From Opitutia bacterium (GTDB lineage Bacteria > Verrucomicrobiota > Verrucomicrobiia > Opitutales > Opitutaceae), in the NCBI GenBank assembly GCA_947472765.1, contig CANJCM010000013.1, positions 1-64,000 on the forward strand: a DNA stretch of 64,000 nt, given 5' to 3'. This document shows positions 29,980-45,323 of the stretch, piece by piece. The notes below the pieces were generated by a model that was not told where the DNA came from, ran no database searches, and saw nothing but the letters and a program-made list of their open reading frames with translations. The position numbers were made by a program, and so were the translations under genes. Position 1 is the stretch's first letter. Each line of letters opens with the position of its first letter.

Positions 29980-30504
29980 ATGGGCGAGGCCTCACGCTAC
30001 GACGACGAGATTGTCATTTCCTGGCCGGAACTACACCGCGATGCGCGGTATCTTTCCGCCCAGCTTCACGAGCGGGGGGGCTGGTCGGGCATCATCGCGA
30101 TCACGCGCGGCGGACTCGTGCCCGCGGCACTCGTGGCCCGCGAGTTGGAGATCCGCCTGATCGACACCGTTTGCCTCGCCAGCTACGGCCTCGCCTCCGC
30201 CGACGGAGCCGAACAGCAGCAGACCGCGGTCCGAGTCCTCAAGGGCGTCGCCGGAGACGGCGAGGGCTACCTCATGATCGACGACTTGGTCGACACGGGC
30301 CGGACCGCGCAGGTCGTCCGGCAGATGCTGCCGAAGGCCTACTTTGCCACCGTCTACGCCAAGCCCGCGGGACGGCCCTTCGTCGACACCTGTGTAAAAG
30401 AGTTCAAGCAAAACAAGTGGATCTACTTTCCTTGGGACATCGACTACCGCTTCTCGCGGCCGATCAAGGACAGCGGGCGCGTCGGGCGCGCCCGCGACGC
30501 GTGA
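29980..30504 (+). CDS. gpt: Xanthine-guanine phosphoribosyltransferase
   Basis: A 174-residue purine salvage enzyme converting xanthine or guanine plus PRPP to the nucleotide. The sequence tracks the enterobacterial Gpt closely: WSGIIAITRGGLVPAALVAR, then IRLIDTVCLASYG, the PRPP loop YLMIDDLVDTGRTA and AKPAGRPFVDT, and WIYFPWDIDY for the base-binding tail. The extended C-terminus ends RARDA. Start at the ATG 29980. The gene is monocistronic, between mobile-element remnants and the LacI gene. It might feed on bases released by the neighbouring catabolic cluster, but that is speculation. Confidence 0.92.
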   Translation: MGEASRYDDEIVISWPELHRDARYLSAQLHERGGWSGIIAITRGGLVPAALVARELEIRLIDTVCLASYGLASADGAEQQQTAVRVLKGVAGDGEGYLMIDDLVDTGRTAQVVRQMLPKAYFATVYAKPAGRPFVDTCVKEFKQNKWIYFPWDIDYRFSRPIKDSGRVGRARDA

Positions 30505-30600: not shown

Positions 30601-31629
30601 TCATTGGGGTGCCGGTCCGTCGGACTTGCGTGGCACAAGAACCACGGGCTCAAGGTAGTGAACGTCCGCCGGCTGGATCTCCTTCCGGAGCAGCTGGAGG
30701 AGGGCTCGGCCGACATATCGGCCGTTCTCGAATACCTGGTGCTCCATCGTGGTGAGCGGAGGGTCGCAAAACGCGGACAGGCTCGAATTGCCGTACCCGA
30801 TCACGGACACATCTCTCCCGATGGAAAGACCGGCTTCACGGCACGCCGCGATCGCCCCGAATGCCATCGAATCCGTCGCGCACACAAAAGCGGTCGGGGC
30901 GGGACGCCGAATCAGGAGCGAGCGGCAGAGTTCGTGCCCGGCCCCCTCCGTCAGGTCGCCGTGAAGCATCCACGTCGGATCCGGCTTCAGCTTGCGACTC
31001 GCCAGCGCTCGCACGTAGCCCCGGCGGCGGAACTGGGCGAACGAGTATTCCTCAGGTCCGTTGATCAGCGCGATCCGTCGGTGCCCGAGATCGAGCAGCC
31101 GGGTCGTCGCCAGACGAAACGCTTTTTCGTTATCGGTGTCCACCCAAGCATAGGGTTGGTCCGACTCCGTTCGACCATAGGCGACGAACGGCATTTTCGC
31201 CGCGCGGGCAAGTTCCAGACGCGCATCGTGCACCCGCGTGCGCACGATCAGCAGCCCGTCGACCCAGCCGCCACGGATGAAGTTCTCAAAAAGCGCGGTC
31301 TCGCGGGCGGCGTCGTGCTTCGCCTGCATCGAGGCCAGAAGGTGGTAACCCGCTGGTTCGATCTCGGTCACCACTCCTCCGAGCAGGCTCGAATACATCG
31401 AGTCAACGGCCTGCCCCGTGCTGCCTGCCGCGGGCAGGATGACCCCAATGGCCAAAGTCTTGCCCGCGCCGAGACGGCGCGCGCTGGGGTTGGGTCGGTA
31501 TCCGATAGCCTTGGCGCGGAGGACGACCCGCTCGCGCGTCGCGGCGGAAACGTCTTCGTAGCCGTTGAGCGCACGCGACACCGTCGAGATCGACAGGCCG
31601 AGACTTTTCGCGAGGAGGACGATCGACAT
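30601..31629 (-). CDS. LacI-family transcriptional regulator
   Basis: A 342-residue repressor. The N-terminal helix-turn-helix and hinge read VLLAKSLGLSISTVSRALNG and IGYRPNPSARRLG, then a periplasmic-binding-type ligand domain starts at TLAIGVILPAAG. Effector-pocket segments include FVAYGRTESDQPYAWVDTD and FVCATDSMAFGAIAA. An 18-bp perfect palindrome lies 91 bases upstream at 31720-31737 and a near-identical one at 37396-37413 between two divergent operons. The central CG with A/T flanks is typical of LacI-family operators. It probably autoregulates and controls the 32-45 kb cluster. The inducer is unknown. Confidence 0.93.
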   Translation of the reverse strand: MSIVLLAKSLGLSISTVSRALNGYEDVSAATRERVVLRAKAIGYRPNPSARRLGAGKTLAIGVILPAAGSTGQAVDSMYSSLLGGVVTEIEPAGYHLLASMQAKHDAARETALFENFIRGGWVDGLLIVRTRVHDARLELARAAKMPFVAYGRTESDQPYAWVDTDNEKAFRLATTRLLDLGHRRIALINGPEEYSFAQFRRRGYVRALASRKLKPDPTWMLHGDLTEGAGHELCRSLLIRRPAPTAFVCATDSMAFGAIAACREAGLSIGRDVSVIGYGNSSLSAFCDPPLTTMEHQVFENGRYVGRALLQLLRKEIQPADVHYLEPVVLVPRKSDGPAPQ

Positions 31630-31713
31630 GATTCGGTAAGAATCTGTGAATAGCGGAGATGCGGGGCAGGCAAGGAACCCGTGACTAAACCGCCGAGTTT
31701 CCGGAGGGAGACG

Positions 31714-31737
31714 TTGCTTGACAAAAACGTTTTTGTC
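31714..31737 (+). promoter_or_regulatory. LacI-type operator 1
   Basis: Perfect palindrome GACAAAAACGTTTTTGTC at 31720-31737, inside a 24-base stretch also found at 37390-37413. It contains TTGACA, a possible -35 box, on the plus strand. It lies between the LacI gene and the glycoside hydrolase gene. The rest of 31630-32098 shows no gene. Confidence 0.8.
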
Positions 31738-32098
31738 TAGCCCTCATCTCCGCGTCCATCCCGCCCTTTTTCCCAGATTTCGCCGTTCCGGCAGGGGCAT
31801 TGGGCCGGGGTCGGTGCTCGAATGCCAAAAACGACTTCGCCGTGTGCTTATTGGGTCCGACCAAACCTTCGTCCTGCCTCTAGCTTAGCCTCCGCACCCT
31901 TTCCGAGAGACTCGGGATCTTCCGAGATGACGGCCTGGAGTGGCGCGGCTCGTGGGGAAGATCGCGAAATCGTCCTCCTCAACTGTTGAGCACCAAGAGT
32001 CCATCCGCCGCTCTGCGGGTCAGTCGTGGGTGGTCTGATTTGAGCCGGACACGCTTCAGGTCCGCCTCGGGCAATTAATTCGCGTCACGTCTCCCGCC

Positions 32099-33418
32099 AT
32101 GTTCGCCGCTGCCACCGCCACGCTCGATCGCAATTGGCGCGACGGCTATACGCTGCCGTCGCCAAACCTCTATCCATTTCAGTGGAATTGGGACGCCGGA
32201 TTCATTGCGCTCGGTCTGGCTTACGTGCGGCCTCAACGTGCCATCGCCGAGCTCCGCAGCCTTTTCCGCGGCCAGTGGCGCAATGGCATGGTGCCCCATA
32301 TCGTGTTTCACCGGCCGGCCGATAACTACTTCCCCGGCCCTGACGTCTGGGGTACGGACGGGGTTCCTTCGCGCCCGGCCGGCGTTCGTACGTCAGGCAT
32401 CACCCAGCCGCCGGTCTTCGCCTTCATCATCGAACGAATGTCGTCGCTGCCACTGGGTGCCACTCCGGAGTGGCAGGCATTCCGGCGCGAGATCTTCCCG
32501 GCGCTGATGGCCCAACATCGCCACCTTTACCGAAACCGCGATCCGCTCGGAGAAGGCCTGGTCTATATTCAGCACAACTGGGAGGCCGGTACCGACAATT
32601 CGCCCGTTTACGACGCGGCGCTGGAGGCGATCGACCTGACGCGGGCTCGTGACGTTTCTAGCCTGCGGCGGGACAACCGAACGGTTGCGGCGGCTCATCG
32701 GCCAACCGACGTCAACTATCGACGCTACCTGGCGTTGGTTGATCTCTTCAACGCGTGCGGCTACCAGGACGCGGAGATTGCGGAACGTTCCCCGTTCCTC
32801 ATTCAGGATGTGCTCTTCAACGCGGTGCTCGCGCGTTCAAATCTGGCGCTGCTTTCGCTGGCGCGCGAGCTCAACGCCGATCCGGCGACGGTGAGTGAAA
32901 TTGAGCGGTGGTGTGAAAAGACGTCCACTGCAATCAACAAGAAATTCTGGGATGCGGAGCTTGGCTTCTACTTCCCGTATGATCTGCGCGCGGGACGCCG
33001 GATCACGATCAAGACCTCCTCCGGCTTCATGCCCCTGTTCGCCCGGGTCTGCGATCCCACGCAGCAGCGGGCGCTGGCCCGTCACCTCACGTCCTCGTTC
33101 GCACCGAGTGCGGACTGGCTCCTCTGTCCTTCGGTGGCGACGGACGAGCCCACCTTCAATCCGTTGGGATACTGGCGCGGCCCCGTGTGGGTGAATGTGA
33201 ATTGGATGCTCCATCATGGCTTGCGCCAGGCCGGCTTGGACGATTTGGCCGAGCGAGTAAGGTCCGACACGCTGCGCGCCCTCGGCGCCGCGGGCCGCTG
33301 GGAGTACTTTGACCCGCGGCCTGGCATCGATCCATCCGCGCTCGGCCTCGGCACCGACGAGTTTTCGTGGAGCGCCGCCTTGGCACTCGACTTTCAGCGC
33401 AACCCCGCCGCGCTCTGA
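32099..33418 (+). CDS. MGH1-like (GH63-related) glycoside hydrolase
   Basis: A 439-residue (alpha/alpha)6-barrel protein of the mannosylglycerate-hydrolase-like/GH63 group, predicted to cleave an alpha-linked glucoside or mannoside. Family features: YTLPSPNLYPFQWNWDAGFIA near residues 17-38, NGMVPHIVFH, IQHNWEAGTDNSPVYD (acidic catalytic region), KTSSGFMPLFARV, and YWRGPVWVNVNWMLHHGL near residue 360. There is no signal peptide, so it is probably cytoplasmic. It lies downstream of LacI operator 1 and is transcribed away from the repressor. Why a glycosidase sits in a cluster of amide and ring hydrolases is unclear. Confidence 0.88.
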   Translation: MFAAATATLDRNWRDGYTLPSPNLYPFQWNWDAGFIALGLAYVRPQRAIAELRSLFRGQWRNGMVPHIVFHRPADNYFPGPDVWGTDGVPSRPAGVRTSGITQPPVFAFIIERMSSLPLGATPEWQAFRREIFPALMAQHRHLYRNRDPLGEGLVYIQHNWEAGTDNSPVYDAALEAIDLTRARDVSSLRRDNRTVAAAHRPTDVNYRRYLALVDLFNACGYQDAEIAERSPFLIQDVLFNAVLARSNLALLSLARELNADPATVSEIERWCEKTSTAINKKFWDAELGFYFPYDLRAGRRITIKTSSGFMPLFARVCDPTQQRALARHLTSSFAPSADWLLCPSVATDEPTFNPLGYWRGPVWVNVNWMLHHGLRQAGLDDLAERVRSDTLRALGAAGRWEYFDPRPGIDPSALGLGTDEFSWSAALALDFQRNPAAL

Positions 33419-33485
33419 CGCCGGGCATCCTCGTCGGATGCTGCTCGGTCGGGATGGCGACAAATCCGCCGCGCTGACTCCTCCG

Positions 33486-34298
33486 TCACGCCGACTCTCC
33501 GTCGGCTCTGGCGGCGCGGGCGAGGTCGGTGATCGCGGCGGCATAGGCTGACGCGATCTGGTCGCGCCACGCGTGCCCTTTCTCAGCTGTACCGGCGGTG
33601 GCGTCGCCCATCACGCCGGATCGGGAGAGGTCAGAGGTGATCCACGCCAGGGTGGCAGGGGCGCGTTCGGGACGAAGGTTCCCCGGTGAATCGACGTGAC
33701 CGCAGTACTCGCTGACGGCCAGTGATCTGTCGACGTACTTTGCGGCGGCGGACAGCATCAGGGCGGTTTCCACCGTATTCGCATGGAAACCGTAGGTCAG
33801 TTCCTGCGCGCTCAGGCCGTGATCGACTTTCGGGGCGAGCATTCCGCAACGCAGTCCCAGCGTGGCCGAGATTTCGCGGAGGGTGTAGGTGATGACGGCG
33901 GAGTTTCCGCCGTGCGTGTTGATGACGGCGACGTGGCGGAATCCCCAAGCGCTGAGTTGGCGTGCCTGCGCCAGAAGGAGTCCGCGCAGGGTGTCCTTTG
34001 AGATCGAAAGCGTTCCGGGAAACCCCGTGTGCTCGTTGCTTTTTCCCACGGTAATCGGGGGAGCGACGTAGCAAGACACGTCGCTGGCCAACTTGGGCAG
34101 CGCGCTCTCCAGCCAAACCTGGCCGAGGAAGGAGTCGACGGCAACCGGGAGGTGCGGTCCATGTTGCTCGATTGCCCCGGTAACGATGATCACCGGGGCC
34201 CATTTCTTGTCGGCAAGGCCCGCGATCTGACGCGGCGTCATCGCGGTGAGGTAGCGCGACCGGTAGGAAGGAAAGAGCGTAGTGGGTGGTGAGCTCAT
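33486..34298 (-). CDS. Creatininase-family amidohydrolase
   Basis: A 270-residue member of the creatininase/formamide-hydrolase family. The ATG at 34298 is chosen over an upstream start because MSSPPTTLFPSYRSRYL begins the domain. Metal-ligand positions are conserved: Glu44, His46 and Asp55 in GAIEQHGPHLPVAVDS, plus NTHGGNSAV and HANTVETALM further on. Such enzymes open cyclic amides or cleave formamides (creatinine, FAPy deaminase products and others). It is the last gene of the leftward operon, 13 bases after its diverged paralogue. Family is firm, substrate is not. Confidence 0.88.
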   Translation of the reverse strand: MSSPPTTLFPSYRSRYLTAMTPRQIAGLADKKWAPVIIVTGAIEQHGPHLPVAVDSFLGQVWLESALPKLASDVSCYVAPPITVGKSNEHTGFPGTLSISKDTLRGLLLAQARQLSAWGFRHVAVINTHGGNSAVITYTLREISATLGLRCGMLAPKVDHGLSAQELTYGFHANTVETALMLSAAAKYVDRSLAVSEYCGHVDSPGNLRPERAPATLAWITSDLSRSGVMGDATAGTAEKGHAWRDQIASAYAAAITDLARAARADGESA

Positions 34299-34311
34299 GG
34301 TGGCGGCACCT

Positions 34312-35085
34312 TCAGGGTTGCTCGGGAAGGATTTTCCCTCCGTTGGCCAGGGGAGCACGGACGTCGATCTCGCCGAGCAACCCGATCAGTTTTCCGGCCG
34401 CCGCGGCAAGGAGCGATGCCCCCGCGTCGCGCGCCACCGCCAGCGGCACCGGAGCGTCCAGGAGTGGATGCACGCTCTCGTCACCCCAGCGACGCGCAGC
34501 GGGACCGGCCGCACCGCCCGCGGGCGTCTCGGGCTCCCGGCCCGTCAGGGCGGTGACGAGGGTCTGAAATTGTCCACGCGTCTGGCTGCGCGTCGGGTGG
34601 AGGTCGAGTCCCAGGCCGCTGAGGCTGATACGAAAGATCTGGAGGCCCAGCGCGATCCGGTTGTCGCGCGCGACGGCGGCGATGAATTCCTCGTTCCACG
34701 GGCTGGAGTTGTACAGGACGACCTTGCGGAAGCCGGAGGCGGAGACGGAGGCGAGGAGTTCCGCCAGCAGGCCGTGGGCCAGAGGCGGATCCACCGCGAA
34801 CGCGCAACCGGCATCCGGCCCGAGGACAAAACGCACGGGAGGCAGCACCAGCAGTGTGAGATCCGATGGTCGCTGCAGTGAGGCCTCGCGAAGCACGCTC
34901 ATGAGCACGATTTCCTCGGCATCCATCGGGTGGCCGAGGCCCCAGTCGGCGCTCCCGGCCAGGGGGATCACGACGAGCGTACGCTCGCGATCGGGCCAGC
35001 GGTGAAACTCGGGCCAGCGGCGCCACGGCCAAAACGTCGCGTCGTCGGCGATGCAGAGCGGGGTGACGGGGGTGGGCGAGCTCAT
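34312..35085 (-). CDS. Creatininase-like protein lacking metal ligands
   Basis: A 257-residue protein I read as a degenerate creatininase paralogue. Around residue 45 LAGSADWGLGHPMDAEE aligns with the GAIEQHGPHLPVAVD metal motif, but the first His is gone and Glu is Asp. VLYNSSPWNEEFIAAVARD replaces the NTHGGN motif. Overall length and order resemble its neighbour at 33486-34298. It may be an inactive subunit of a hetero-complex or a neofunctionalised enzyme. The start overlaps the RidA stop by four bases, so it is co-translated. Confidence 0.6.
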   Translation of the reverse strand: MSSPTPVTPLCIADDATFWPWRRWPEFHRWPDRERTLVVIPLAGSADWGLGHPMDAEEIVLMSVLREASLQRPSDLTLLVLPPVRFVLGPDAGCAFAVDPPLAHGLLAELLASVSASGFRKVVLYNSSPWNEEFIAAVARDNRIALGLQIFRISLSGLGLDLHPTRSQTRGQFQTLVTALTGREPETPAGGAAGPAARRWGDESVHPLLDAPVPLAVARDAGASLLAAAAGKLIGLLGEIDVRAPLANGGKILPEQP

Positions 35086-35480
35086 GAGGCGGCCGTGATC
35101 TCGATCTCGACGCAGCAGCCGGGGCGCGCGAGTCCCTTGACTTCGATCAGGGTGCTCGCGGCCATCGATCCCCCGAGGTACCGGTTGCGCACCGCGGAGA
35201 ACTTGGGGAAGTCGTCCATGTTGGTCAGATAGGTCTGCGCGCGCACGACGTGATCGAACGTCATTCCGGCGGCCTGAAGAATCTCCCCCAGCAGCTTGAA
35301 CACGTACTCGCTCTGCTCGGTCGCGTCGCCCGGAGCGATGACGTTGCCGGAGGGGTCAACCGCGAGTTGCCCGGTCGCATAGAGGGTCCGGGTGCCCGCA
35401 TGCTGCAGCAGGATGCCAGGGCTGTAGGCACCGCGTGGCTTGGCGAAGCCGGTGGGGTAGACGATGGTCTTCTTCAGCAT
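35082..35480 (-). CDS. RidA-family enamine/imine deaminase-like protein
   Basis: A 132-residue RidA/YjgF/RutC-type protein. The fold is indicated by PRGAYSPGILLQHAGTRTLY, the ATGQLAVDPSG segment, QSEYVFKLLGEILQAAG, and the C-terminal LARPGCCVEIEITAAS. The ARPG loop keeps the family Arg near residue 119 that binds the substrate carboxylate. Family members hydrolyse reactive enamines or imines, and RutC acts in pyrimidine breakdown. Here it lies between DUF2165 and the creatininase-like gene, fitting removal of a reactive nitrogenous intermediate. Confidence 0.88.
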   Translation of the reverse strand: MLKKTIVYPTGFAKPRGAYSPGILLQHAGTRTLYATGQLAVDPSGNVIAPGDATEQSEYVFKLLGEILQAAGMTFDHVVRAQTYLTNMDDFPKFSAVRNRYLGGSMAASTLIEVKGLARPGCCVEIEITAAS

Positions 35481-35517
35481 GGTGGCGTGGGTTGGGGCGG
35501 AAGAGTTGGGAGCTTCG

Positions 35518-36012
35518 TCAGCCGACGTCGTCGTCTCGCTGGTTCAGAAACACGAGGATCAGGGCGAAGACGGTGAACATCCGAGCCGCGGCAGTCTGAC
35601 CATTCCACGTGTTCGACTGCCACATCAGAAACCACTCGCCGCCGACGATGATGAAGGCGATGAACCATTGCAGAAGGCTAATCGTGAGGCCCGCCACGGC
35701 GAGGGAGGTGGCCTTCCGCCAGGCGTCCGCCGACTTGGCGCGCGCACGCCACATCCGAACCGCGGCCACCGCCAGCAGGGCTCCGGCCGCCAGTTCCCAC
35801 ACGATGATCATGGCGTAGAAGGCATGGTGGACGATTGGTGACGTGAGTGCCCGCCACATCCCGCGGTTGCCCGGGAACGTCGTGTCCATCGAAAGCACGT
35901 GGCGCACGAACTCGAAGTTCGACCCGTAGTCGGTCAGGTTGTTGAAGACAACCAGCAGCAGGAAGAAGGCGGAGGAAGCCACCAGTGAAACCTTGGCGAG
36001 ACGAATGAGCAT
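35518..36012 (-). CDS. DUF2165 membrane protein
   Basis: A 164-residue inner-membrane protein with about four transmembrane segments (about 8-28, 62-82, 100-122, 135-155). Start at ATG 36012. Features of DUF2165 are NNLTDYGSNFEFVRHVLSMD after TM1, then a TFPGN loop, and QWFIAFIIVGGEWFLMWQS near residue 125. The family is unassigned; its position suggests a transport or accessory membrane role for the leftward operon. It lies 13 bases after the amidohydrolase gene. Confidence 0.82.
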   Translation of the reverse strand: MLIRLAKVSLVASSAFFLLLVVFNNLTDYGSNFEFVRHVLSMDTTFPGNRGMWRALTSPIVHHAFYAMIIVWELAAGALLAVAAVRMWRARAKSADAWRKATSLAVAGLTISLLQWFIAFIIVGGEWFLMWQSNTWNGQTAAARMFTVFALILVFLNQRDDDVG

Positions 36013-36025
36013 GGAGCGAGAAGGT

Positions 36026-37324
36026 TTACCGATCGTTGAGCTCCGCGAAGTTGGGGGCGTGCGCGCGGTGAATCTCCTCGGCATCGATGCAGAGCCGGGA
36101 CGCGCTTGGGCGGCTCAGGAGTTCGCTGAATCGGTGGGCCTCGAGCACGACCAACTGCGCCGCCGCCCCCGGCGCGATCCGGCCATGGTCGGGGAGGCCG
36201 AGCAGATCGGCGGCGGTGCTGGTGACGACGCGAACCGATTCCTCCAGGCGTGAATCGAGATGCGCCAGTCGCACGCTCTGCGCGTAGACCTCGGCGAGGT
36301 TGTAGTCGCCGAACGCGTGGAACGCGTCCCGGACGTTGTCGCTGGCGCACGCGACGGCGATCCCTGCATCCATGAGATCATGCACCAGCGTGATCCCCCG
36401 CCAAAGCGGGGTGCGGGGAAACGGAGCCGCCGCGTCCCGTCGATCCTGGAGGTACAAATTGCATTCGGGCAGAGAGATGATGCCGATGCGCGCCTCCCGG
36501 ACCAGCGCGATCGTGGATTGGGCGCGGGCGTGATCCTGAACCGCCAGGCTGCAGCAATGGCCACAGGCCACGGGCAGGCTGAAACCAGACCTCAAGACGG
36601 CCTCGGCCACCAACCGGAGGCATTCCGCCTGGGGGTTGCCGCTTTCGTCCACGTGCAGATCGATCCCGACGCCGCGCTCGCATGCAAGGGCGAGCATGCG
36701 GTCCAGTTGAGCGGGAAGCTCGGCGGACATCGTCAGAAACCCTCCCAGCGCGCTCGCGCCGTGGCGCAGCGCGAGGTCGGCGAGCTTTGCGCCCTCGGCG
36801 GTCAGGTAGTCGCTGCCGCCGCACAGTGGGACGGTCTGAAGCGTGATGCGACCGGCCCATTCCCGTCGGAGCTCCGCCATCACGGAGTGACTGCGTTCCC
36901 CCCATTGCGGGCTGGTGTCCACATGCGTCCGGATCACGCGCGTGCCGTGCGCCCACGCGGAGCGCAGCGCGAAGCCGGCGCGACGATGGAGATCGTCCTC
37001 GGTCCAGTGCTCCTTATCCTCCGCCAGGGCTTGCAGTGCACCCATGAACGTGCCGGACCGGTTGGGCGCGCGGTGCCACGTGTGGGTCTTGTCCAGATGC
37101 ACGTGGGCGTCGACAAAGCCGGGAAACACCAGCGAGCCACCGGCATCGAACTCGCGGGCCGCGGGGTGAGGTCCAAGGTGCCCGGCGGAAACGACCGTCG
37201 TGATCCGGCTTCCTTCGATGGCCAAATCGCAGAGCACGGCCGGCTCGAGAGGATCGATCTGCGCGCCCGCGGGACGAGCGGGCAGCAGGGACGCGGGAAC
37301 GCGGGCGCGGCGGACAATGAGCAT
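36026..37324 (-). CDS. Cytosine-deaminase-like amidohydrolase
   Basis: A 432-residue metal-dependent amidohydrolase of the CodA/AtzC type, predicted to deaminate or hydrolyse a nitrogen heterocycle. From ATG 37324: a beta-sandwich strand set, then FPGFVDAHVHLDKTHTW (HxH metal site), RTHVDTSP, GIDLHVDESGNP (the HxxE-type region), ACGHCCSLAVQDH (second His), and ACASDNVRDAFHAFGDYN (catalytic Asp and CodA-like loop). The C-terminus completes the composite sandwich. It is the first gene of the leftward operon, with LacI operator 2 lying 66 bases upstream of the start. Cytosine, creatinine or related cyclic ureas are possible substrates. Confidence 0.88.
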   Translation of the reverse strand: MLIVRRARVPASLLPARPAGAQIDPLEPAVLCDLAIEGSRITTVVSAGHLGPHPAAREFDAGGSLVFPGFVDAHVHLDKTHTWHRAPNRSGTFMGALQALAEDKEHWTEDDLHRRAGFALRSAWAHGTRVIRTHVDTSPQWGERSHSVMAELRREWAGRITLQTVPLCGGSDYLTAEGAKLADLALRHGASALGGFLTMSAELPAQLDRMLALACERGVGIDLHVDESGNPQAECLRLVAEAVLRSGFSLPVACGHCCSLAVQDHARAQSTIALVREARIGIISLPECNLYLQDRRDAAAPFPRTPLWRGITLVHDLMDAGIAVACASDNVRDAFHAFGDYNLAEVYAQSVRLAHLDSRLEESVRVVTSTAADLLGLPDHGRIAPGAAAQLVVLEAHRFSELLSRPSASRLCIDAEEIHRAHAPNFAELNDR

Positions 37325-37389
37325 CGGGATGGGTGCAGCAGCGCGAATGCCACGCCGCCGATGGTGGCCAAAGGTGGGTCGCGGGGAGG

Positions 37390-37413
37390 TTGCTTGACAA
37401 AAACGTTTTTGTA
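37390..37413 (+). promoter_or_regulatory. LacI-type operator 2 with overlapping promoter
   Basis: GACAAAAACGTTTTTGTA at 37396-37413 matches the first operator with one mismatch; the shared stretch is 24 bases from GTTGCTTGAC. TTGACA (37394-37399) with 17 bases to TGTTCA (37417) could be a rightward promoter that the repressor would occlude. It is shared by two divergent operons. The remaining 37325-37590 shows nothing else. Confidence 0.78.
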
Positions 37414-37590
37414 CAGTGTTCAATTTTCTCCCTCGCCACCGCCTTTGCGAAAGCACTCCAATCAAATCCGCGTCCGTACCGCGCTCCCCGCACCTCCTCC
37501 ACGTTTCGGAAGGTTTTTGAGTTTTGGCATCAGACGTGCCGCTGGTGGGTTTGACCAACTCGAACTTTGCTCCCGCGAAATAATGCCCCA

Positions 37591-39015
37591 ATGATCCCCC
37601 TCCCTGATTTCCTGCTGGTCGAGTTGCGTGCCTTGCTCGGGGCCGAACATGTGATCGACGGAGGGGATGCGCTGGAGGGCCTGTCAAAGGACTTCTTCTG
37701 GTATTCCCCGGTGCTGCGGCGCCAGCTGGAGGGCAAGCGGGCCGATCTCGCGGTGCGTCCGGGCTCGATTGACGAGTTGCGCGCGGTGATCAGGGCCTGC
37801 TTTCGCGCCGGGGTGCCGATTGTGCCGCGCGGTGCCGGTACCGGAAACTACGGCCAATGCGTTCCACTCTACGGCGGTGTGGTGGTCGACTTCGCGCGGC
37901 TTGATCGCATCCACTCGGTGGAAGGAGGCGTGGTGCGGGCCGAGGCCGGCGCGCGACTGGGCACGATTGAAGCCGTGGCCCGGGCTTCAGGGTGGGAGCT
38001 GAGGTGCATTCCGTCGACTTGGGTCAAGAGCACGATCGGGGGATTTTTCTGCGGAGGATCCGGTGGCATCGGATCCATCACGTGGGGCGGCATCAACGCC
38101 GGCGACAACGTCAAGTCGGTCACGGTGATGTCCTGCGAGGAGGAGCCGCGGCTGATTCGGTTGGAGGAGCGTGACTCGATCCGGGCGCTCCACACCTACG
38201 GAACCACGGGCTTCATGGTGGAGGTCGAGATGCGGCTCGCACCGAAAGCCAACTATGAGCAACTCATCTTCAGCTCACGCGACTGGGGGCGGCTGCTGGA
38301 TTGGACCGACCTTGCGGCGCGGAACGACGCCTGGCATAAGCGGCTCGTCACCCAGTTTGAGTGGCCCATCCCGTCGTACTTCAAGCCGCTCGCGAAGCAC
38401 CTCAAGTCCGATGAACATGCGTCCTTTCTGCTCGTGTCTCGCGATCAGGCGGATGAGGTGATCGCTTCGGCCTCGGCCGCGGGTTTGAACGGCGTCTACC
38501 GCCAGCCGCTGTCGGATCCGCCGAGGCCCCCGTTCATCACGGACTACACGTGGAACCACACCACGCTGTGGGCGCTGAAAGCTGATCCCTCGATCACCTA
38601 CCTTCAGTCCGGCTTCGGGACCAATTTCCGCGACCAGTTCGCTGAACTTCATCGCCGGTTTCCGGGTGAGATCCTGTTCCATCTGGAATGGATGGCCGGA
38701 GGGATCAAGTTTGTGGCGGGCGGTGGTCCAAGCAGTGCCGGAAGTCACATTGTGGTGGCAGGGATTCCGTTGGTTTTCTTCAAGAGTGAGGAGCGCCTGG
38801 CGGAGATCATCCTGGTTTGTAGTGAAATCGGCGTTGGGATCGCCAATCCCCATACCTTCTTCTTGGAGGAGGGGGGCAGGCATCCCAACATCGCCGAGAA
38901 ACGCGCCCTGAAGGCCGAGGTTGATCGGGCCGGTCTGCTCAACCCGGGAAAGATGAAGTCGTTCCCGGTCAACCCGTTTGAGCCTGCCCTTTCGGGTGAT
39001 GTCCCACGCCGATGA
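37591..39015 (+). CDS. FAD-linked oxidase (PCMH-type, GlcD-like)
   Basis: A 474-residue flavoprotein with an FAD-binding PCMH domain in the N-terminal half. ATG 37591 gives MIPLPDFLLVELRALLG. FAD contacts: VRPGSIDELRAVIRACF, then PIVPRGAGTGNYGQCVPLYG, and STIGGFFCGGSGGIGSITWG. The C-terminal cap is shorter than in GlcD and ends in the usual NPGKMKSFP. The electron acceptor is unknown; a cytochrome c and a Rieske protein lie in the same cluster. First gene of the rightward operon; the ABC ATPase follows after seven bases. Family is clear, substrate unknown. Confidence 0.87.
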   Translation: MIPLPDFLLVELRALLGAEHVIDGGDALEGLSKDFFWYSPVLRRQLEGKRADLAVRPGSIDELRAVIRACFRAGVPIVPRGAGTGNYGQCVPLYGGVVVDFARLDRIHSVEGGVVRAEAGARLGTIEAVARASGWELRCIPSTWVKSTIGGFFCGGSGGIGSITWGGINAGDNVKSVTVMSCEEEPRLIRLEERDSIRALHTYGTTGFMVEVEMRLAPKANYEQLIFSSRDWGRLLDWTDLAARNDAWHKRLVTQFEWPIPSYFKPLAKHLKSDEHASFLLVSRDQADEVIASASAAGLNGVYRQPLSDPPRPPFITDYTWNHTTLWALKADPSITYLQSGFGTNFRDQFAELHRRFPGEILFHLEWMAGGIKFVAGGGPSSAGSHIVVAGIPLVFFKSEERLAEIILVCSEIGVGIANPHTFFLEEGGRHPNIAEKRALKAEVDRAGLLNPGKMKSFPVNPFEPALSGDVPRR

Positions 39016-39022
39016 TCGAAGG

Positions 39023-39784
39023 ATGAACGCGGCTCCCGTAGTCAAGATCAGCGGGCTGAACAAGCGCTTCGGTACCGGACCGCGGGTGCTGGATGGCATC
39101 GATCTGGAGGTGAGCCAGGGAGAGTTCGTCAGTTTCATCGGACCCAGCGGCTGCGGCAAATCTACTCTTCTTCGGCTGATTGCGGGTCTCACGTCCGCCA
39201 GTGAGGGCCGGATCACGATCGATGGCATGGAACCGGAGAAGGCGCGGGAAAAGATGTTCTTCGTGTTTCAAGACGCCACGCTCATGCCTTGGCGGCGGGT
39301 GGCGGAGAACGTGGAACTGCCGTTGCTGTTGCGCGGGGATGCTCCCGCGCACCGCCACGAGCGCGTCGGCCGGATGCTCGAGATCGTTGGCCTGGCGGGT
39401 GCGGCGGAGAAGTTTCCATGGCAACTTTCCGGCGGCATGAGGATGCGGGTTTCGATCGCGCGAGCGCTGAGCGTGGCGCCGGAGATCCTGTTGCTCGATG
39501 AGCCCTTCGGGGCGCTGGATGAAATGACGCGTGACCGGCTCAACGAAGACCTGCTCTCGATTCGCAGCCGGGACCCCTTCACGGGCTTCTTCGTGACGCA
39601 CTCGGTCGCGGAGGCAGTCTTCCTGTCCTCGCGAATCGTGGTGCTGGGCGCTAATCCCGGCCGCGTGACTGCAGTGATCGACGTCCCGTTTCCGTACCCG
39701 CGGCAGTCGGAATTGCGGGAGACGCCGGCGTTCCTGCGCCTGCTGGCCACGACCGCGCAGGCACTGCGCGCGGTTCGTTCCTGA
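39023..39784 (+). CDS. ABC transporter ATPase, nitrate/sulfonate/taurine type
   Basis: A 253-residue ATPase energising the adjacent permease. ATG 39023 is chosen because MNAAPVVKISGLNKRFG starts the domain. Walker A GPSGCGKST, Q-loop FFVFQDATLMPWRR, signature LSGGMRMRVSIARAL, Walker B ILLLDEPFGALDE and H-loop FFVTHSV are all intact, and the TLMPWR after the Q-loop is typical of the SsuB/TauB/ThiZ group. Operon position between the FAD oxidase and the permease. Confidence 0.94.
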   Translation: MNAAPVVKISGLNKRFGTGPRVLDGIDLEVSQGEFVSFIGPSGCGKSTLLRLIAGLTSASEGRITIDGMEPEKAREKMFFVFQDATLMPWRRVAENVELPLLLRGDAPAHRHERVGRMLEIVGLAGAAEKFPWQLSGGMRMRVSIARALSVAPEILLLDEPFGALDEMTRDRLNEDLLSIRSRDPFTGFFVTHSVAEAVFLSSRIVVLGANPGRVTAVIDVPFPYPRQSELRETPAFLRLLATTAQALRAVRS

Positions 39785-39788
39785 ACGA

Positions 39789-40586
39789 ATGAACGCCTCG
39801 CTCCGACCCCGTCTCACCGCCTGTCTGCTGCCCGCGGTCACGGCAGCGGCGCTGATCGTCCTCTGGTACGTCATCAAGGCGGCATTCCGGGTGCCGACGT
39901 TCGTGCTGCCGGCCCCCCATGAGATTCTGGTGGCCGCCTGGGAAGAACGGGCGTTTCTCTGGCCGGCGGCCCTGGTGACCGTCCGCGGCGCGCTGCTCGG
40001 CTTCTCGGCTGCGGTGGGCGTCGGCTTTCTGCTGGCCATGGCGCTCGGATTTTCGCCGCGCATCAAGGCGTCGTTCTACCCGCTGATTCTGGTCCTGCAG
40101 ATGATGCCGGTCACGATCCTCGCGCCCATCTTCGTGCTCTGGCTGGGGCAGGGTCTGCCGAGCATCGTGGCGATCACCTTCATGATCGGTTTTTTCCCCA
40201 TCGTGGCGAACACGACGATGGGCTTCATCTCCGTCGACCGAAACCTCCGGGAACTCTTCGTCATGTGCAACGCGACCCGCGCGCAGGAGGCGCGCTACCT
40301 GCGGATCCCGGGCGCGATGCCGTATTTTCTCACCGGCATGAAGATCGCCGGCACGCTTGCGCCCATCGGGGCGATTGTCGGCGATTTTCTCGCCGGCAGC
40401 GCACAGGGCGGGGTGGGTGGGATCGGGTACATGACGATCTCGTATTTCTCGCAGCTCAAGACGCCTGCACTCTTCGCGACCGGTCTGGTCGCCTGCTTGA
40501 TGGGTTTCCTGTTCGTCGGCGGAGTCAATTGGCTCCATTGGCGCCTGCTCCACACTTGGCACGATTCGATGGTGAAAAAGGAATGA
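39789..40586 (+). CDS. ABC transporter permease, SsuC/ThiX-like
   Basis: A 265-residue inner-membrane permease with about six transmembrane segments (TM1 about residues 12-32). The ATPase-docking segment lies near residues 160-180 (NATRAQEARYLRIPGAMPYF), the EAA-like loop of the family. It starts five bases after the ATPase stop and overlaps the binding-protein start by four bases (ATGA). No missing parts are evident. Confidence 0.93.
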   Translation: MNASLRPRLTACLLPAVTAAALIVLWYVIKAAFRVPTFVLPAPHEILVAAWEERAFLWPAALVTVRGALLGFSAAVGVGFLLAMALGFSPRIKASFYPLILVLQMMPVTILAPIFVLWLGQGLPSIVAITFMIGFFPIVANTTMGFISVDRNLRELFVMCNATRAQEARYLRIPGAMPYFLTGMKIAGTLAPIGAIVGDFLAGSAQGGVGGIGYMTISYFSQLKTPALFATGLVACLMGFLFVGGVNWLHWRLLHTWHDSMVKKE

Positions 40587-41614
40587 ATACCTCTCGCAAC
40601 CCCATCCATGCCGGCGCCCTCCTCGCCGCGCTGGCGGCCATCGTCCTTTCCGGCTGCGGCGATCAGCGCTCCAGTGCGCCCGCTCCCGCGCAGGTCAAGT
40701 TGGAGAAGGTCATCCTGCAGACGGACTGGTACGCGCAGCCGGAGCACGGCGGATTCTATCAGGCTCAGGTCAAGGGCTACTATCGCGACGTGGGGCTCGA
40801 CGTGGAGATCCTGCAGGGCGGGCCCAACGCCATTCCCACCCAGAAGGTGGCGCTGGGGACGGCACAGTTTGCCGTGGGACGCACGGACGAGCTGATCATC
40901 GCCGCCGGCCGAGGCATCCCCGTGGTCGCATTGGCGGCGCTCATGCAGCGCGATCCCCAGGGCGTGATGTTTCATCCGGAGTCCGGTATCCGTGACTTCA
41001 AGGATCTTGACGGCCGCAGCGTGATGACGGTGCCCGGGGCCGCTTGGTTGACCCTCGTTCAATTGAAGTATGGGATCAAGATGTCGGTCACGCCGCTGGA
41101 CTTCGGGCTGAGCCGGTTTCTCGCCGACAAGCGTCTCGTCCAGCAGTGCTTCATCACGAACGAGCCCTTCTACATCCGCCAGCAGGGCGTTGATGTCGGG
41201 GTCCTCCTGCTGTCCGAGGCCGGCATCGACCCCTACCGCATCTGGTTCACGAGCAGCGATTACGCCGCGCGACGTCCGGAGGTGGTGCGCGCCTTCACGG
41301 CGGCCTCGATCCGCGGCTGGCGCGACTACATCGACGGCGACCGTCGAGACGCCGACGTGCGCATTGGCCAGCTGAACCAAAAAATGACACCCGAATTCAT
41401 CGCCTTTAGCGTTGAGGTGATGCGAGCCAACCGGCTTGTGCACGGGGATCCGGCGAAGGGGGAGCTTCTCGGTCGGATCGACCCGGCGCGTCTCGGTGCC
41501 GAGATCAAGCGGCTGTCCGCGATCGGCGTTCTGGGCCGAGCGGTGACGCTCGCCGAGGTCTTTGACGGGAAATTCCTGCCGGAGGACGTGAGGGTGGTTG
41601 CGACCGGGAAATGA
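40583..41614 (+). CDS. ABC substrate-binding lipoprotein, THI5/NMT1-like
   Basis: A 343-residue binding lipoprotein. Signal peptide with lipobox LSGC (Cys25). The mature part belongs to the SsuA/THI5-like superfamily: VILQTDWYAQPEHGGFYQAQ, GYYRDVGLDVEILQGGPNAI, then FAVGRTDELIIAAGRGIPVV and YGIKMSVTPLDFGLSRF. Members close to this group carry thiamin pyrimidine precursors, riboflavin or other aromatic and heterocyclic solutes, which fits the hydrolases around it. It completes an importer with the two preceding genes. A weak 46-codon frame begins at the overlapping ATG 41611 but I do not call it a gene. Confidence 0.9.
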   Translation: MNTSRNPIHAGALLAALAAIVLSGCGDQRSSAPAPAQVKLEKVILQTDWYAQPEHGGFYQAQVKGYYRDVGLDVEILQGGPNAIPTQKVALGTAQFAVGRTDELIIAAGRGIPVVALAALMQRDPQGVMFHPESGIRDFKDLDGRSVMTVPGAAWLTLVQLKYGIKMSVTPLDFGLSRFLADKRLVQQCFITNEPFYIRQQGVDVGVLLLSEAGIDPYRIWFTSSDYAARRPEVVRAFTAASIRGWRDYIDGDRRDADVRIGQLNQKMTPEFIAFSVEVMRANRLVHGDPAKGELLGRIDPARLGAEIKRLSAIGVLGRAVTLAEVFDGKFLPEDVRVVATGK

Positions 41615-41867: not shown

Positions 41868-42112
41868 GTCCGGAGATCCACGTGCGCTGCCAACCGCGGG
41901 TTTTTTGACTGTCATGGCCTCCCCTATGTCGTTTGGAACGCATGCCCCGACCGGAGCAAACCGTGCGTCGGCTGGTGCGTTGCGATGCTCGATGCGCCCC
42001 TGGGCGAACGTTGCGCATCGGGCGTCCCCCATCCCGTCCGGCCCCGCCTCGATCCCGGGTCGCACGTCTCACTGAAGGGCCCTCGGGTCGATTCCTCGCC
42101 TCCTCCTCTACC

Positions 42113-42544
42113 ATGGCGCGCCATCCTGTCCTGAAACTGAGTGATCTGCCGCCTGGCTCGCGTAAAATCGTGAAGGTGGCGGGAATTGAGATCGGCCTCT
42201 TCAACGTGGCCGGCCAGGTCCACGCCTACCGCAACGTCTGCCCGCATGGCGGCGCGCCCGTCTGCCTTGGTAAAGTGACCGGTACGACCCTGCCGTCCCG
42301 GGTCTATGAGTACGAATACGGGCTCGACGGCTGCATTCTGCGCTGTCCGTGGCACGGCTGGGAGTTCGACCTCCGCACGGGAGAGCACCTCGTGGATCCC
42401 GAAACGAGACTGAAAAAAATCCGCGTGGAATCTGACGGTAATCCGGCGGCCGGTCTGGAGAATCTGGATCGCTTCCCGGTCGAGTCGGACGGCGATTTTC
42501 TCTGCGTCGTGCTGCCCGGAGGCAATGCCGGCGTGCAATCCTGA
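42113..42544 (+). CDS. Rieske [2Fe-2S] ferredoxin-like protein
   Basis: A 143-residue Rieske protein. The cluster ligands are Cys43-Pro-His45 (NVCPHGGAPVC) and Cys78-x-x-His81 (LRCPWHGWEFDLRTGE). There is no signal or transmembrane segment, so it is a soluble electron carrier of the oxygenase or nitrite-reductase small-subunit type; no oxygenase alpha subunit is nearby. ATG 42113 is chosen over upstream in-frame starts, which lie in sequence unlike coding DNA. It is followed by the metal-dependent hydrolase gene 13 bases on. Confidence 0.88.
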   Translation: MARHPVLKLSDLPPGSRKIVKVAGIEIGLFNVAGQVHAYRNVCPHGGAPVCLGKVTGTTLPSRVYEYEYGLDGCILRCPWHGWEFDLRTGEHLVDPETRLKKIRVESDGNPAAGLENLDRFPVESDGDFLCVVLPGGNAGVQS

Positions 42545-42557
42545 CCCCGATATCCCC

Positions 42558-43658
42558 ATGCCAGAAGATACCCCCGCCGTCTCCGCTCGACCGCGCATCA
42601 TCGACACGGACGTGCACAACGCCTTCGCGGACGTGCGCGCGGAACTCAAACCCTATTTGTCGCGGGCCTGGCAGGCCTATGCTGACCACCACGGGATCGT
42701 GATGCCGGGAACCGGCTACAACTCCTCGGTCGGAGTGCAGCGGCAGGACGCGCGCACGCCTTCAGGAGGCATGGCCGGGAGTGATCCCGACTTCATGATC
42801 ACGGATCACCTCGATCGCTTCGGCATCGACTTCGCGATCCTGACCGGGTCGCACGTCCTGGGAGTTTCCGTGCATACGGATCCCGACTGGGGCAACGCGC
42901 TTGCCACGGCCTACAATCGCAACCTCGCGGAACGCTGGCTCAGTCGCTCCCCGCGTTTTCGGGGCTCCATCGTGGTGAACCACTCGGACCCCGAGGCCGC
43001 CGCGCGCGAGATCCGGCGTTGCGCACCCGACAAGCGTTTCGTCCAGGTTCTGATGGCGAGTGGTTCGTCCCGGTTGTTCGGGCAGCGCTTCTTTCATCCC
43101 ATCTTCGAGGCCGCGTGCGAGTACAACCTGCCGGTGGCGGTGCATCCCGGAACTGAGGGTGCCGGCACCGCCGGCCCGGCGACGCCGGCTGGATCCCCGA
43201 CCCGATACTTTGAGTGGCACAACATCGTTCCCCTGAATTTCATGGGACACGTCAACTCGCTCGTGTGTGAAGGGGCCTTCGAAAAATTCCCCCAGCTGAG
43301 GTTCGTCGCCATCGAGGGCGGTCTGGCGTGGCTGCCCCAGCTGATGTGGCGGATGGACAAGAACTACAAGGCGCTGCGTTCAGAGGCCCCCTGGCTGCGG
43401 CACCTCCCCAGCCAGTACATCCGCGATCATGTGTTCGTGACGACGCAGCCCGTCGAGGAGCCGGAGCAACCCCAGCACTTCCTCCAGATCCTCGAGATGA
43501 TCAACGCGCCGGGCAACGTCATGTATTCAAGCGATTACCCACACTGGGACTTCGATAATCCGCGAATGACTCTGCAGTTTCTCCCGAAGGAGTGGAAGCA
43601 GCGCATCTTCCACGATAATGCAGCCGCGCTCTACGGGTTGGCCGCTCGTCCGGCGTGA
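42558..43658 (+). CDS. Amidohydrolase-2 (ACMSD-like) metal-dependent hydrolase
   Basis: A 366-residue TIM-barrel hydrolase or decarboxylase. Residues IIDTDVHNAF near the N-terminus give only one His of the usual HxH, as in several family-2 members. VAVHPGTEG (about residue 195), HVNSLVCEGAFEKFPQLRF, AIEGGLAWLPQLMWRMD and MYSSDYPHWDFD (metal Asp) complete the core. Related proteins are ring-cleavage hydrolases or decarboxylases of aromatic acids. The pairing with a Rieske protein 13 bases upstream suggests action on an oxidised ring product; this is inference. Confidence 0.85.
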   Translation: MPEDTPAVSARPRIIDTDVHNAFADVRAELKPYLSRAWQAYADHHGIVMPGTGYNSSVGVQRQDARTPSGGMAGSDPDFMITDHLDRFGIDFAILTGSHVLGVSVHTDPDWGNALATAYNRNLAERWLSRSPRFRGSIVVNHSDPEAAAREIRRCAPDKRFVQVLMASGSSRLFGQRFFHPIFEAACEYNLPVAVHPGTEGAGTAGPATPAGSPTRYFEWHNIVPLNFMGHVNSLVCEGAFEKFPQLRFVAIEGGLAWLPQLMWRMDKNYKALRSEAPWLRHLPSQYIRDHVFVTTQPVEEPEQPQHFLQILEMINAPGNVMYSSDYPHWDFDNPRMTLQFLPKEWKQRIFHDNAAALYGLAARPA

Positions 43659-43699
43659 TGGATTTCTTCTTCACCACCCTAATCGTTGCACGAATCCCC

Positions 43700-44287
43700 A
43701 TGAAGAACCTAAGCCCTCTCCTGCCGCCCTCACTGCATGCCGGCCTCGTGGTCCTGCTCCTCCTGTCCGTGTCGCCCGCGATCCTCGCGTCCAGCGGTGC
43801 AGCGCCCGCGGCGGGTACTGCGCCGGTCGCCGCCGGTGGCACGACTAGCATCATCGCCGGCCTGTCGGCGCCGTTGACGGATGAGAAAGGAGAAAAATGG
43901 CTCCCCTCCCGCGATTTCCTCGATGGGGACACGATGGTTCGCCCCGAGCTCTCGATCGCGAACACCGAAATCCCATCCGTTTACTGCTCGGAGCGGTTTG
44001 GCATGACCCGTTTTGTGCGGCGGATTCCGAACGGGAACTACCTGGTGAAGCTGCACTTCGCGGTCACCTACAAGGCGATCGACGGACCCCGCCAATGTGT
44101 ATTTAGCTTTGATGTCGAGGGGCGCGCCTTCAAGGACTCAGACCTCTTCGCGCGGGCCGGCGGGGATCTCAAAGCTTACGTTGAGTCAATTCCGGTGGCG
44201 ATCAGGGATGGCGATCTCGAAATCAAGTTCACGGGTCTGTCCGGAAATCCCACCATCAGCGCCATCGAGATTGTCCCCCAACCTTGA
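43700..44287 (+). CDS. Secreted malectin-like domain protein
   Basis: A 195-residue exported protein. ATG 43700 starts a signal peptide (about residues 1-36, hydrophobic GLVVLLLLSVSPAILA). The rest resembles a malectin carbohydrate-binding domain: DEKGEKWLPSRDFLDGD, YCSERFGMTRFVRRIPNGNY, LVKLHFAVTY, FSFDVEGRAFKDSDLF and DGDLEIKFTGLSGNPTISAI. It probably binds a sugar in the periplasm or at the surface. An upstream in-frame ATG at 43655 overlaps the previous stop but would disrupt the signal peptide. The cytochrome gene follows after four bases. Confidence 0.8.
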   Translation: MKNLSPLLPPSLHAGLVVLLLLSVSPAILASSGAAPAAGTAPVAAGGTTSIIAGLSAPLTDEKGEKWLPSRDFLDGDTMVRPELSIANTEIPSVYCSERFGMTRFVRRIPNGNYLVKLHFAVTYKAIDGPRQCVFSFDVEGRAFKDSDLFARAGGDLKAYVESIPVAIRDGDLEIKFTGLSGNPTISAIEIVPQP

Positions 44288-44291
44288 AGCC

Positions 44292-45323
44292 ATGATCGCT
44301 TGGTTCCGCGAAGCGGGTGCAGCCGGGCGACCGGACCGATCAATGTTCCCCGTCCACCTGCTTTCCCGGCCCGGCGCCCTCGCGCGTCGGATCGCCTCAC
44401 GCTGGTCACGGCGCCGGCGCGGCGCAGACTCGCGGGTCGCTCCGGCCGGACCCTCCGAGAATCGTCGCGTCCGGACCCTGGCGCTGGTCCTGCTGCTACC
44501 GTCCTTCGTTCTGGGAGCGAAGGCGCGGGAGCTGCCCCTCCATGCCGATCGCGCCTCGAACTTGGATCTCGCCCTCACAGGCCTGCTCGCGGGAACCGAG
44601 CCGGGAGCCAAGCGCTACGCACGCTGGGCGGACGTCGCGCAACTGCCGCGGACCAAACTCCGTGTGAACGGGGAATTCGTCCCCGGGGAGCAGGAGGTCA
44701 CGGTCGTCTTCCTGTCCGACCTATGGGCGGCGCTGCCCGTGCGGGAGGGAGCCGACGCACTGCTGGCGACGTCCTCAGATGGCTACGCCGCGGTCTACGG
44801 GACTTCGTTCATCCGAGACTACCGGCCGTTCCTCGTCTTGGAAATCAACGGGCAAGGTCCGGAAAAGTGGCCTCCGGCGGGACTGCGGTTCAATCCCGGA
44901 CCTTACGTGATCAGTGTGGCCGCCTCGGTGGTCCCCGCGGTGGCGAAGCTGATCGATGCGGGGCACAAGCGTCCGTGGGGCGTGACGACCATCGAGATCG
45001 CCCGCCTCGAGGGCCGTTTCGACGCCTTCTTTAGCGACCCGTGGGCCGGGGCCGGCGCGGCGGTGCGCCAGGGGCGCGAGCTCTGGATTCACTCCTGCTC
45101 CAGTTGCCACCGCGGCCCGGGCGAGGTGTTCGGCGGGACGAAGGGGGATCGCCCCTTTGCGTTGCTGGCCGCGCAGGCCCGCCACACGCCGGCCTATTTC
45201 CGGCGGTACATCACGGCCCCCAAGGAACTCGTGCCGACCGCCAGGATGGAGGCGCACCCGCACTACACGGAGGCGCAGCTTGATGCCTTGACGGCGTTCG
45301 TCGCCCTTGGGGTAGCGCCGTAG
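44292..45323 (+). CDS. Exported c-type cytochrome with unassigned N-terminal domain
   Basis: A 343-residue protein. The first 55 residues are very Arg-rich, with a hydrophobic segment at about 61-75 (TLALVLLLPSFVLGAKA), so translation may start at a later codon such as ATG 44343. Residues about 90-235 form a beta-rich domain (LRVNGEFVPG, SSDGYAAVYG, GVTTIEIARLEG) faintly like a sulfite-oxidase-type fold. A single-haem cytochrome c follows with C269-S-S-C272-H273 and a probable distal Met in MEAHPHYT. As last gene of the rightward cluster it may accept electrons from the FAD oxidase. Confidence 0.8.
   Translation: MIAWFREAGAAGRPDRSMFPVHLLSRPGALARRIASRWSRRRRGADSRVAPAGPSENRRVRTLALVLLLPSFVLGAKARELPLHADRASNLDLALTGLLAGTEPGAKRYARWADVAQLPRTKLRVNGEFVPGEQEVTVVFLSDLWAALPVREGADALLATSSDGYAAVYGTSFIRDYRPFLVLEINGQGPEKWPPAGLRFNPGPYVISVAASVVPAVAKLIDAGHKRPWGVTTIEIARLEGRFDAFFSDPWAGAGAAVRQGRELWIHSCSSCHRGPGEVFGGTKGDRPFALLAAQARHTPAYFRRYITAPKELVPTARMEAHPHYTEAQLDALTAFVALGVAP

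What the first reader, a model, noticed from the sequence alone, without database searches (positions are those of the whole stretch)
31714..37413. Paired 24-base LacI operators define a regulon
31714-31737 and 37390-37413 are the same 24 bases around a palindrome with a central ACGT. One precedes the LacI gene and a glycosidase, the other lies between two divergent operons. TTGACA lies inside the operator. This predicts a single switch for at least three transcripts.
Basis: partly seen in the sequence, partly recalled or inferred. Interest (0 to 1): 0.6.

Follow-up and report, generated by a model that had tools for sequence, protein, structure and literature searches.

The report
LacI repressor's two-site sugar-plus-nitrogen regulon
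Two identical DNA landing sites, the only ones in this bacterium's genome, almost certainly let one sugar-sensing repressor protein control both its own sugar-splitting enzyme and a neighbouring cluster that in related bacteria exists without that repressor, so a known kind of switch appears to have taken over an older set of genes.

Summary
In detail: a perfect palindrome (core ACAAAAACGTTTTTGT) lies at 31721-31736 and 37397-37412. The shared 24-mer is really 31713-31736 = 37389-37412, one base left of the stated coordinates. No other site with up to 3 mismatches exists in the 4.97 Mb assembly.

The LacI reading is supported by comparison. Ten of 252 family genomes carry this LacI (at least 61% identity) and all ten have the operator by lacI. 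Only 5 of 242 without it have any copy, one of them an unrelated repeat. All six genomes with both LacI and the codA cluster keep the codA-side operator. In one, a TonB receptor moved to another contig has its own exact copy.

Across phyla this LacI sits beside an MGH1-like glycosidase, so it is a sugar-type regulator with a conventional LacI operator. The codA/creatininase/RidA | FAD-oxidase/ABC cluster occurs without LacI or operator in relatives (codA in 34 such family genomes, ten inspected), mostly with divergent sigma-54-like elements. In the window lineage the operator lies between these divergent operons, and the FAD-oxidase-side element has decayed.

A real regulon: new member of a known kind, with regulator capture as the interesting part. 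Binding and inducer are untested.

The parts
30601..31629 (-). LacI-family repressor gene (342 aa); HTH residues 7-47, sugar/effector-binding domain 177-336
   Evidence: Pfam LacI 36.6 bits, Peripla_BP_3 117.8 bits; orthologs in 10 of 252 family genomes; recognition segment LSISTVSRALNGY invariant in all ten
31713..31736 (.). Operator O1 of the lacI-glycosidase region; core ACAAAAACGTTTTTGT 31721-31736; TTGACA 31718-31723 points at the glycosidase
   Evidence: conserved upstream of lacI in the other nine orthologs at 0-1 mismatch
31825..31840 (.). Degenerate auxiliary operator O2 (CCAAAAACGACTTCGC, 5 mismatches), 104 bp from O1
   Evidence: same place as intact or near-intact second sites in G021 (104 bp), G253 (106), G032 (111), G264/G271 (114), G001 (121)
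32099..33418 (+). MGH1-like glycoside hydrolase (GH63 type), predicted target transcript
   Evidence: Pfam MGH1-like_GH 331.6 bits; best solved relative T. thermophilus TTHA0978 chain 2z07/4wva-c E 5.7e-95, then the mycobacterial hydrolase 6g3n/5ohc E 1e-62
33486..34301 (-). Creatininase-family amidohydrolase 1 (codA operon)
   Evidence: Pfam Creatininase 186 bits
34312..35085 (-). Creatininase-family protein 2 (codA operon)
   Evidence: Pfam Creatininase 33.3 bits, just over the cut-off
35082..35480 (-). RidA/YjgF-family protein (codA operon)
   Evidence: Pfam Ribonuc_L-PSP 85 bits
35518..36012 (-). DUF2165 small membrane protein (codA operon)
   Evidence: Pfam DUF2165 203 bits
36026..37330 (-). 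Cytosine-deaminase-like amidohydrolase, first gene of the codA operon
   Evidence: NCBIfam NF005759 476.8 bits against cut-off 403; solved relatives CodA and AtzC
37337..37352 (-). Sigma-54-like element pointing at codA (TGGCATTCGCGCTGCT)
   Evidence: GG-N10-GC at the equivalent place in most LacI-less codA loci
37389..37412 (.). Operator O1 of the codA | FAD-oxidase divergent region; core 37397-37412; TTGACA 37394-37399 points at the FAD-oxidase operon
   Evidence: GCTTGACAAAAACGTTTTTGT invariant in six species and at the relocated TonB gene of G267
37505..37520 (.). Remnant of the second operator (TTCGGAAGGTTTTTGA), about 108 bp from O1, damaged
   Evidence: aligned with near-intact copies 109-112 bp from O1 in G254, G120, G253
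37525..37540 (+). Degenerate sigma-54-like element pointing at the FAD-oxidase gene (TGGCATCAGACGTGCC)
   Evidence: score 7.1 against 15.9-23.9 in LacI-less relatives
37591..39015 (+). FAD-binding oxidase/dehydrogenase, first gene of the rightward operon
   Evidence: Pfam FAD_binding_4
38978..41614 (+). ABC importer: ATPase 38978-39784, permease 39789-40586, NMT1/THI5-like binding protein 40583-41614
41933..45323 (+). Rieske protein, amidohydrolase-2, malectin-domain protein and cytochrome c ORF; possibly the same or a separate transcript
   Evidence: synteny conserved in G021, G267, G253

Best explanation
The two palindromes are the high-affinity operators of the neighbouring LacI-family protein, which most likely represses lacI itself, the MGH1-like glycosidase, and both arms of the codA | FAD-oxidase divergent cluster until a glycoside or its product binds the repressor. 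The regulator's ancestral partner is the glycosidase. In this lineage the lacI-glycosidase unit sits beside a catabolic cluster that also exists independently, and its operator lies between that cluster's divergent operons, so both now answer to one signal. Shown: the sites, their uniqueness in the genome, their co-occurrence with this LacI, conservation of both placements, and the relocated target with its own operator. Inferred: protein binding, repression as the sign, a sugar effector, the direction of evolution (operator gained here rather than lost elsewhere), and which promoter type is blocked.
For: Only two sites with up to 3 mismatches in 4.97 Mb. LacI ortholog present in 10/252 family genomes, all ten with the operator, against 5/242 without (Fisher p about 1e-14, not corrected for shared ancestry). 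Operators 87-147 bp upstream of lacI in all ten. In six species across four genera the codA-side operator has 21 invariant bases inside diverged flanks. In G267 the TonB receptor, which in G021, G254, G120 and G253 lies between this operator and the FAD-oxidase gene, sits on another contig with its own exact operator. Orthologs in MAGs labelled Gammaproteobacteria and ANGP1 (65-66% identity) keep the same operator and an MGH1-like gene. An even palindrome with a central CG is the canonical LacI-family site (PMC4052901). The 34 family genomes with codA and without this LacI have no operator within 1 mismatch; the ten inspected carry most of the same cluster.
Against: No binding or expression data. 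No sigma-70 -10 element is recognisable beside either TTGACA, so the repressed promoter is not identified. The second operators that relatives have are degenerate in the window. The cluster's sigma-54-like elements suggest another input, so LacI may not be the only control. Co-occurrence is partly one horizontally moved island (LacI 91-97% identical in five genomes whose RpoN is 74-83%), so the ten genomes are not ten independent cases.
Confidence: 0.88

Rival explanations
1. The palindrome serves lacI and the glycosidase only; the copy between codA and the FAD-oxidase gene is a bystander that arrived with a duplicated or moved promoter fragment and has no role.
For: The codA cluster exists without this operator in many relatives and has its own sigma-54-like elements.
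Against: The codA-side copy is kept exact in six species while its flanks diverge, and the TonB gene that lies outside the cluster in G267 has an exact copy.
Confidence: 0.07
2. A different transcription factor (another LacI paralog) binds these sites.
For: LacI-family proteins share related CG-centred palindromes (PMC4052901).
Against: Family genomes with many other LacI-like candidates lack the site unless this ortholog is present.
Confidence: 0.03
3. The palindrome is a repeat element, recombination site or terminator rather than an operator.
For: One relative, G222, holds eight copies inside a much longer perfect palindrome with unrelated flanks, showing that such sequences can be repeats.
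Against: In the own genome there are only two copies; the copies here lack the longer arms; position upstream of genes and tracking with lacI are specific.
Confidence: 0.02

Closest known systems
Local LacI-family sugar-utilisation regulons (Ravcheev et al. 2014, PMC4052901)
   Same: Even palindrome with central CG, autoregulatory position near the regulator gene, a few local operons including a glycosidase and transporters
   Different: Regulon also covers an amidohydrolase/creatininase/RidA cluster not obviously about sugar; the word Verrucomicrobia does not occur in that paper
Mannosylglycerate/glucosylglycerate hydrolase genes (T. thermophilus TTHA0978; mycobacterial hydrolase 5ohc/6g3n; enzyme names from general knowledge)
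   Same: The glycosidase is a clear homolog over its whole length
   Different: Scores below the curated glucosylglycerate hydrolase cut-off (356.8 against 550 bits), so substrate is not assigned
PurR, CytR and other LacI-family regulators of nucleobase/nucleoside genes
   Same: LacI-family fold; a target resembles cytosine deaminase; best NCBIfam hit is CytR, far below cut-off (173 against 436 bits)
   Different: Orthologs' constant partner is a glycosidase with sugar-type transporters, not nucleotide genes

Membership tests
LacI-family transcription factor | N-terminal LacI HTH plus periplasmic-binding-protein-like effector domain | tested here: met
   PF00356 36.6 bits (cut-off 27) at 7-47 and PF13377 117.8 bits at 177-336
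LacI-family operator | Even palindrome of 16-22 bp with central CG, usually 30-140 bp upstream of a start codon | tested here: met
   18 and 16 bp, central CG, 91 bp from the lacI and 66 bp from the codA start; criteria from PMC4052901
LacI-family operator | Sequence-specific binding by the cognate protein | not testable with these tools
   needs gel shift or footprint
Autoregulated local LacI regulon | Operator next to the regulator gene conserved among orthologs | tested here: met
   10 of 10 family orthologs and four more distant ones
Glucosylglycerate hydrolase (NF047898) | Curated score cut-off 550 bits | tested here: not met
   356.8 bits
Cytosine deaminase-like NF005759 | Curated score cut-off 403 bits | tested here: met
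   476.8 bits; enzymatic activity not tested
CytR or PurR regulators | Curated score cut-offs 436 and 501 bits | tested here: not met
   173.3 and 140.4 bits
Sigma-54 promoters at the codA | FAD-oxidase region | GG-N10-GC with TGGCA and TTGCW surroundings, conserved in place, RpoN in genome | tested here: inconclusive
   elements in most of 20 loci and RpoN present, but start sites unknown and implied leaders very short; window FAD-oxidase-side copy degenerate
Sigma-70 promoter with -35 inside the operator | TTGACA plus a TATAAT-like -10 at 16-18 nt | tested here: not met
   0 found in 31600-37700; TTGACA orientation is nevertheless conserved in relatives

The most novel reading that the evidence does not exclude
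A sugar-responsive LacI repressor captured a ready-made catabolic cluster by placing its operator between that cluster's two divergent sigma-54-type promoters, the older promoter on one side then decayed, and the combined island spread between genera: a visible switch of control from activator-driven sigma-54 to repressor-driven transcription.
Probability: 0.4. Interest if true: 0.55.

Novelty: new member of a known kind. Interest (0 to 1): 0.36.

Why it matters
It gives a well-bounded, predictable regulon in a group (Opitutaceae known mostly from metagenome assemblies) for which the literature searches found no described LacI operator, and it ties a cluster of unknown substrate to a glycosidase through shared control, which narrows what that cluster may degrade. 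The comparison with 34 family genomes that hold codA without this LacI (ten clusters inspected) offers a natural before-and-after series for studying how a repressor takes over an existing pathway.

Tried and rejected
A sigma-70 promoter at the operators: the consensus scan found none, so I do not claim one in the window. TonB receptor as a hidden third target in the own genome: no ortholog found (best 27% over a part). Repeat-element reading prompted by G222: rejected, since those copies sit inside a longer palindrome with unrelated flanks. Nucleobase regulator (CytR/PurR) reading suggested by the codA-like gene: rejected as family membership and because orthologs go with glycosidases. Activators of sigma-54 next to the cluster: the own genome has several, none on the window's contig. 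Literature searches for an Opitutaceae LacI operator or for a creatininase/codA/NMT1 cluster found nothing. Substrate of the codA cluster: not resolved.

Full report
Observation. The palindromic core is ACAAAAACGTTTTTGT (18 bp perfect at site 1, 16 bp at site 2). Chance is excluded: 0.01 matches expected in the window, 2 seen, and the whole assembly of 4.97 Mb holds these two and no others with up to 3 mismatches.

Setting. lacI (30601-31629, minus) lies left of site 1 and an MGH1-like glycoside hydrolase (32099-33418, plus) right of it. Site 2 separates a minus-strand operon (cytosine-deaminase-like amidohydrolase, DUF2165, RidA, two creatininase-family proteins) from a plus-strand operon (FAD-binding oxidase, ABC ATPase and permease, NMT1-like binding protein), followed by Rieske, amidohydrolase-2, malectin and cytochrome c ORFs.

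Co-occurrence test. In 57 genomes (own and relatives) the exact core occurred only in the four with this LacI. In the family (252 genomes), ten have the LacI at 61-100% identity, the own one included, and all ten have the site at up to 1 mismatch; five of the other 242 have a site. Fisher p is about 1e-14, without correction for relatedness. One of the five, G222, has eight copies embedded in a longer perfect palindrome with unrelated flanks, a separate repeat family.

Placement test. The operator stands 87-147 bp upstream of lacI in all ten. Several relatives have a second site 104-121 bp further on; in the window it survives only as a degenerate copy at 31825-31840. On the codA side, six species in four genera keep GCTTGACAAAAACGTTTTTGT unchanged in diverged surroundings, again with a second site about 110 bp away in three and a damaged remnant in the window. 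In G021, G254, G120 and G253 a TonB-dependent receptor gene lies between this operator and the FAD-oxidase gene; in G267 its 80-82% identical ortholog sits on another contig with an exact operator of its own. That relocated target is the strongest single argument for a functional regulon. The receptor was not found in the own genome.

What the regulator is for. The constant partner of LacI orthologs is the MGH1-like glycosidase: with a TonB receptor, a sodium symporter and a PQQ protein in G001, fused to a GH65 protein in G032, G264 and G271, and with symporter, GH65-like or ABC genes in Gammaproteobacteria, ANGP1 and Burkholderiales loci. The glycosidase's nearest solved relatives are the Thermus TTHA0978 protein and the mycobacterial hydrolase, which from general knowledge are mannosylglycerate and glucosylglycerate hydrolases; it scores below the curated glucosylglycerate cut-off, so the substrate is open. 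A sugar-type effector is inferred.

The captured cluster. A codA ortholog is found in 40 family genomes, 34 of them without this LacI and without an operator within 1 mismatch. Ten of the 34 were inspected: most carry the codA, DUF2165, creatininase, RidA, FAD-oxidase and ABC genes, mostly in the same divergent layout, with some rearranged or cut by contig ends. Thirteen of the 14 LacI-less loci examined show a GG-N10-GC element (TGGCA..YTGCT) pointing at the FAD-oxidase gene, and most also one pointing at codA; RpoN is encoded in the own genome. In operator-bearing genomes the FAD-oxidase-side element scores lower (7.1-15.8 against 15.9-23.9). This fits takeover of a sigma-54-driven cluster by a repressor, but transcript starts are unmapped and implied leaders are very short, so I hold it at 0.4. 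LacI is 91-97% identical in five genomes whose RpoN is only 74-83% identical to the own one, which points to horizontal movement of the island.

Promoter. TTGACA overlaps the lacI-proximal operator in every family ortholog and points away from lacI, as a -35 box would, yet no acceptable -10 is found in the window. The blocked promoter is therefore not identified.

Verdict. A genuine, local LacI regulon with conventional operators; novelty lies in its reach over a second, formerly independent cluster.

Noticed in passing
window 37337-37352 (-) and 37525-37540 (+); loci L166-L179: Sigma-54-like GG-N10-GC elements flank the codA | FAD-oxidase intergenic region in most LacI-less relatives, with very short implied leaders; the FAD-oxidase-side one is degenerate in the window.
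   Followed up: partly
L063:7968-7983 (G267 contig C6): TonB-dependent receptor separated from its usual cluster carries its own exact operator.
   Followed up: yes
L068-L075 (G222): Eight copies of a long near-perfect palindrome (about 36-40 bp, ..GCACATTTAGACAAAAACGTTTTTGTCTAAATGTGC..) with unrelated flanks: a repeat family of unknown nature that contains the same 16-mer.
   Followed up: partly
L011:15242-18889 and L066:8306-12064: GH65-type protein fused in one reading frame to the MGH1-like glycosidase (about 1215-1252 aa) behind two operators.
   Followed up: no
window 29980-30504 (+): Phosphoribosyltransferase gene ending close to and convergent with lacI; not near the operators.
   Followed up: no
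window 34312-35085 (-): Second creatininase-family protein matches the family only weakly (33.3 bits, cut-off 31.3) and only over its first part.
   Followed up: no
L086-L089: LacI orthologs of 65-66% identity with the same operator in MAGs labelled Gammaproteobacteria and Terrabacteria ANGP1, suggesting transfer between phyla or mislabelled bins.
   Followed up: partly
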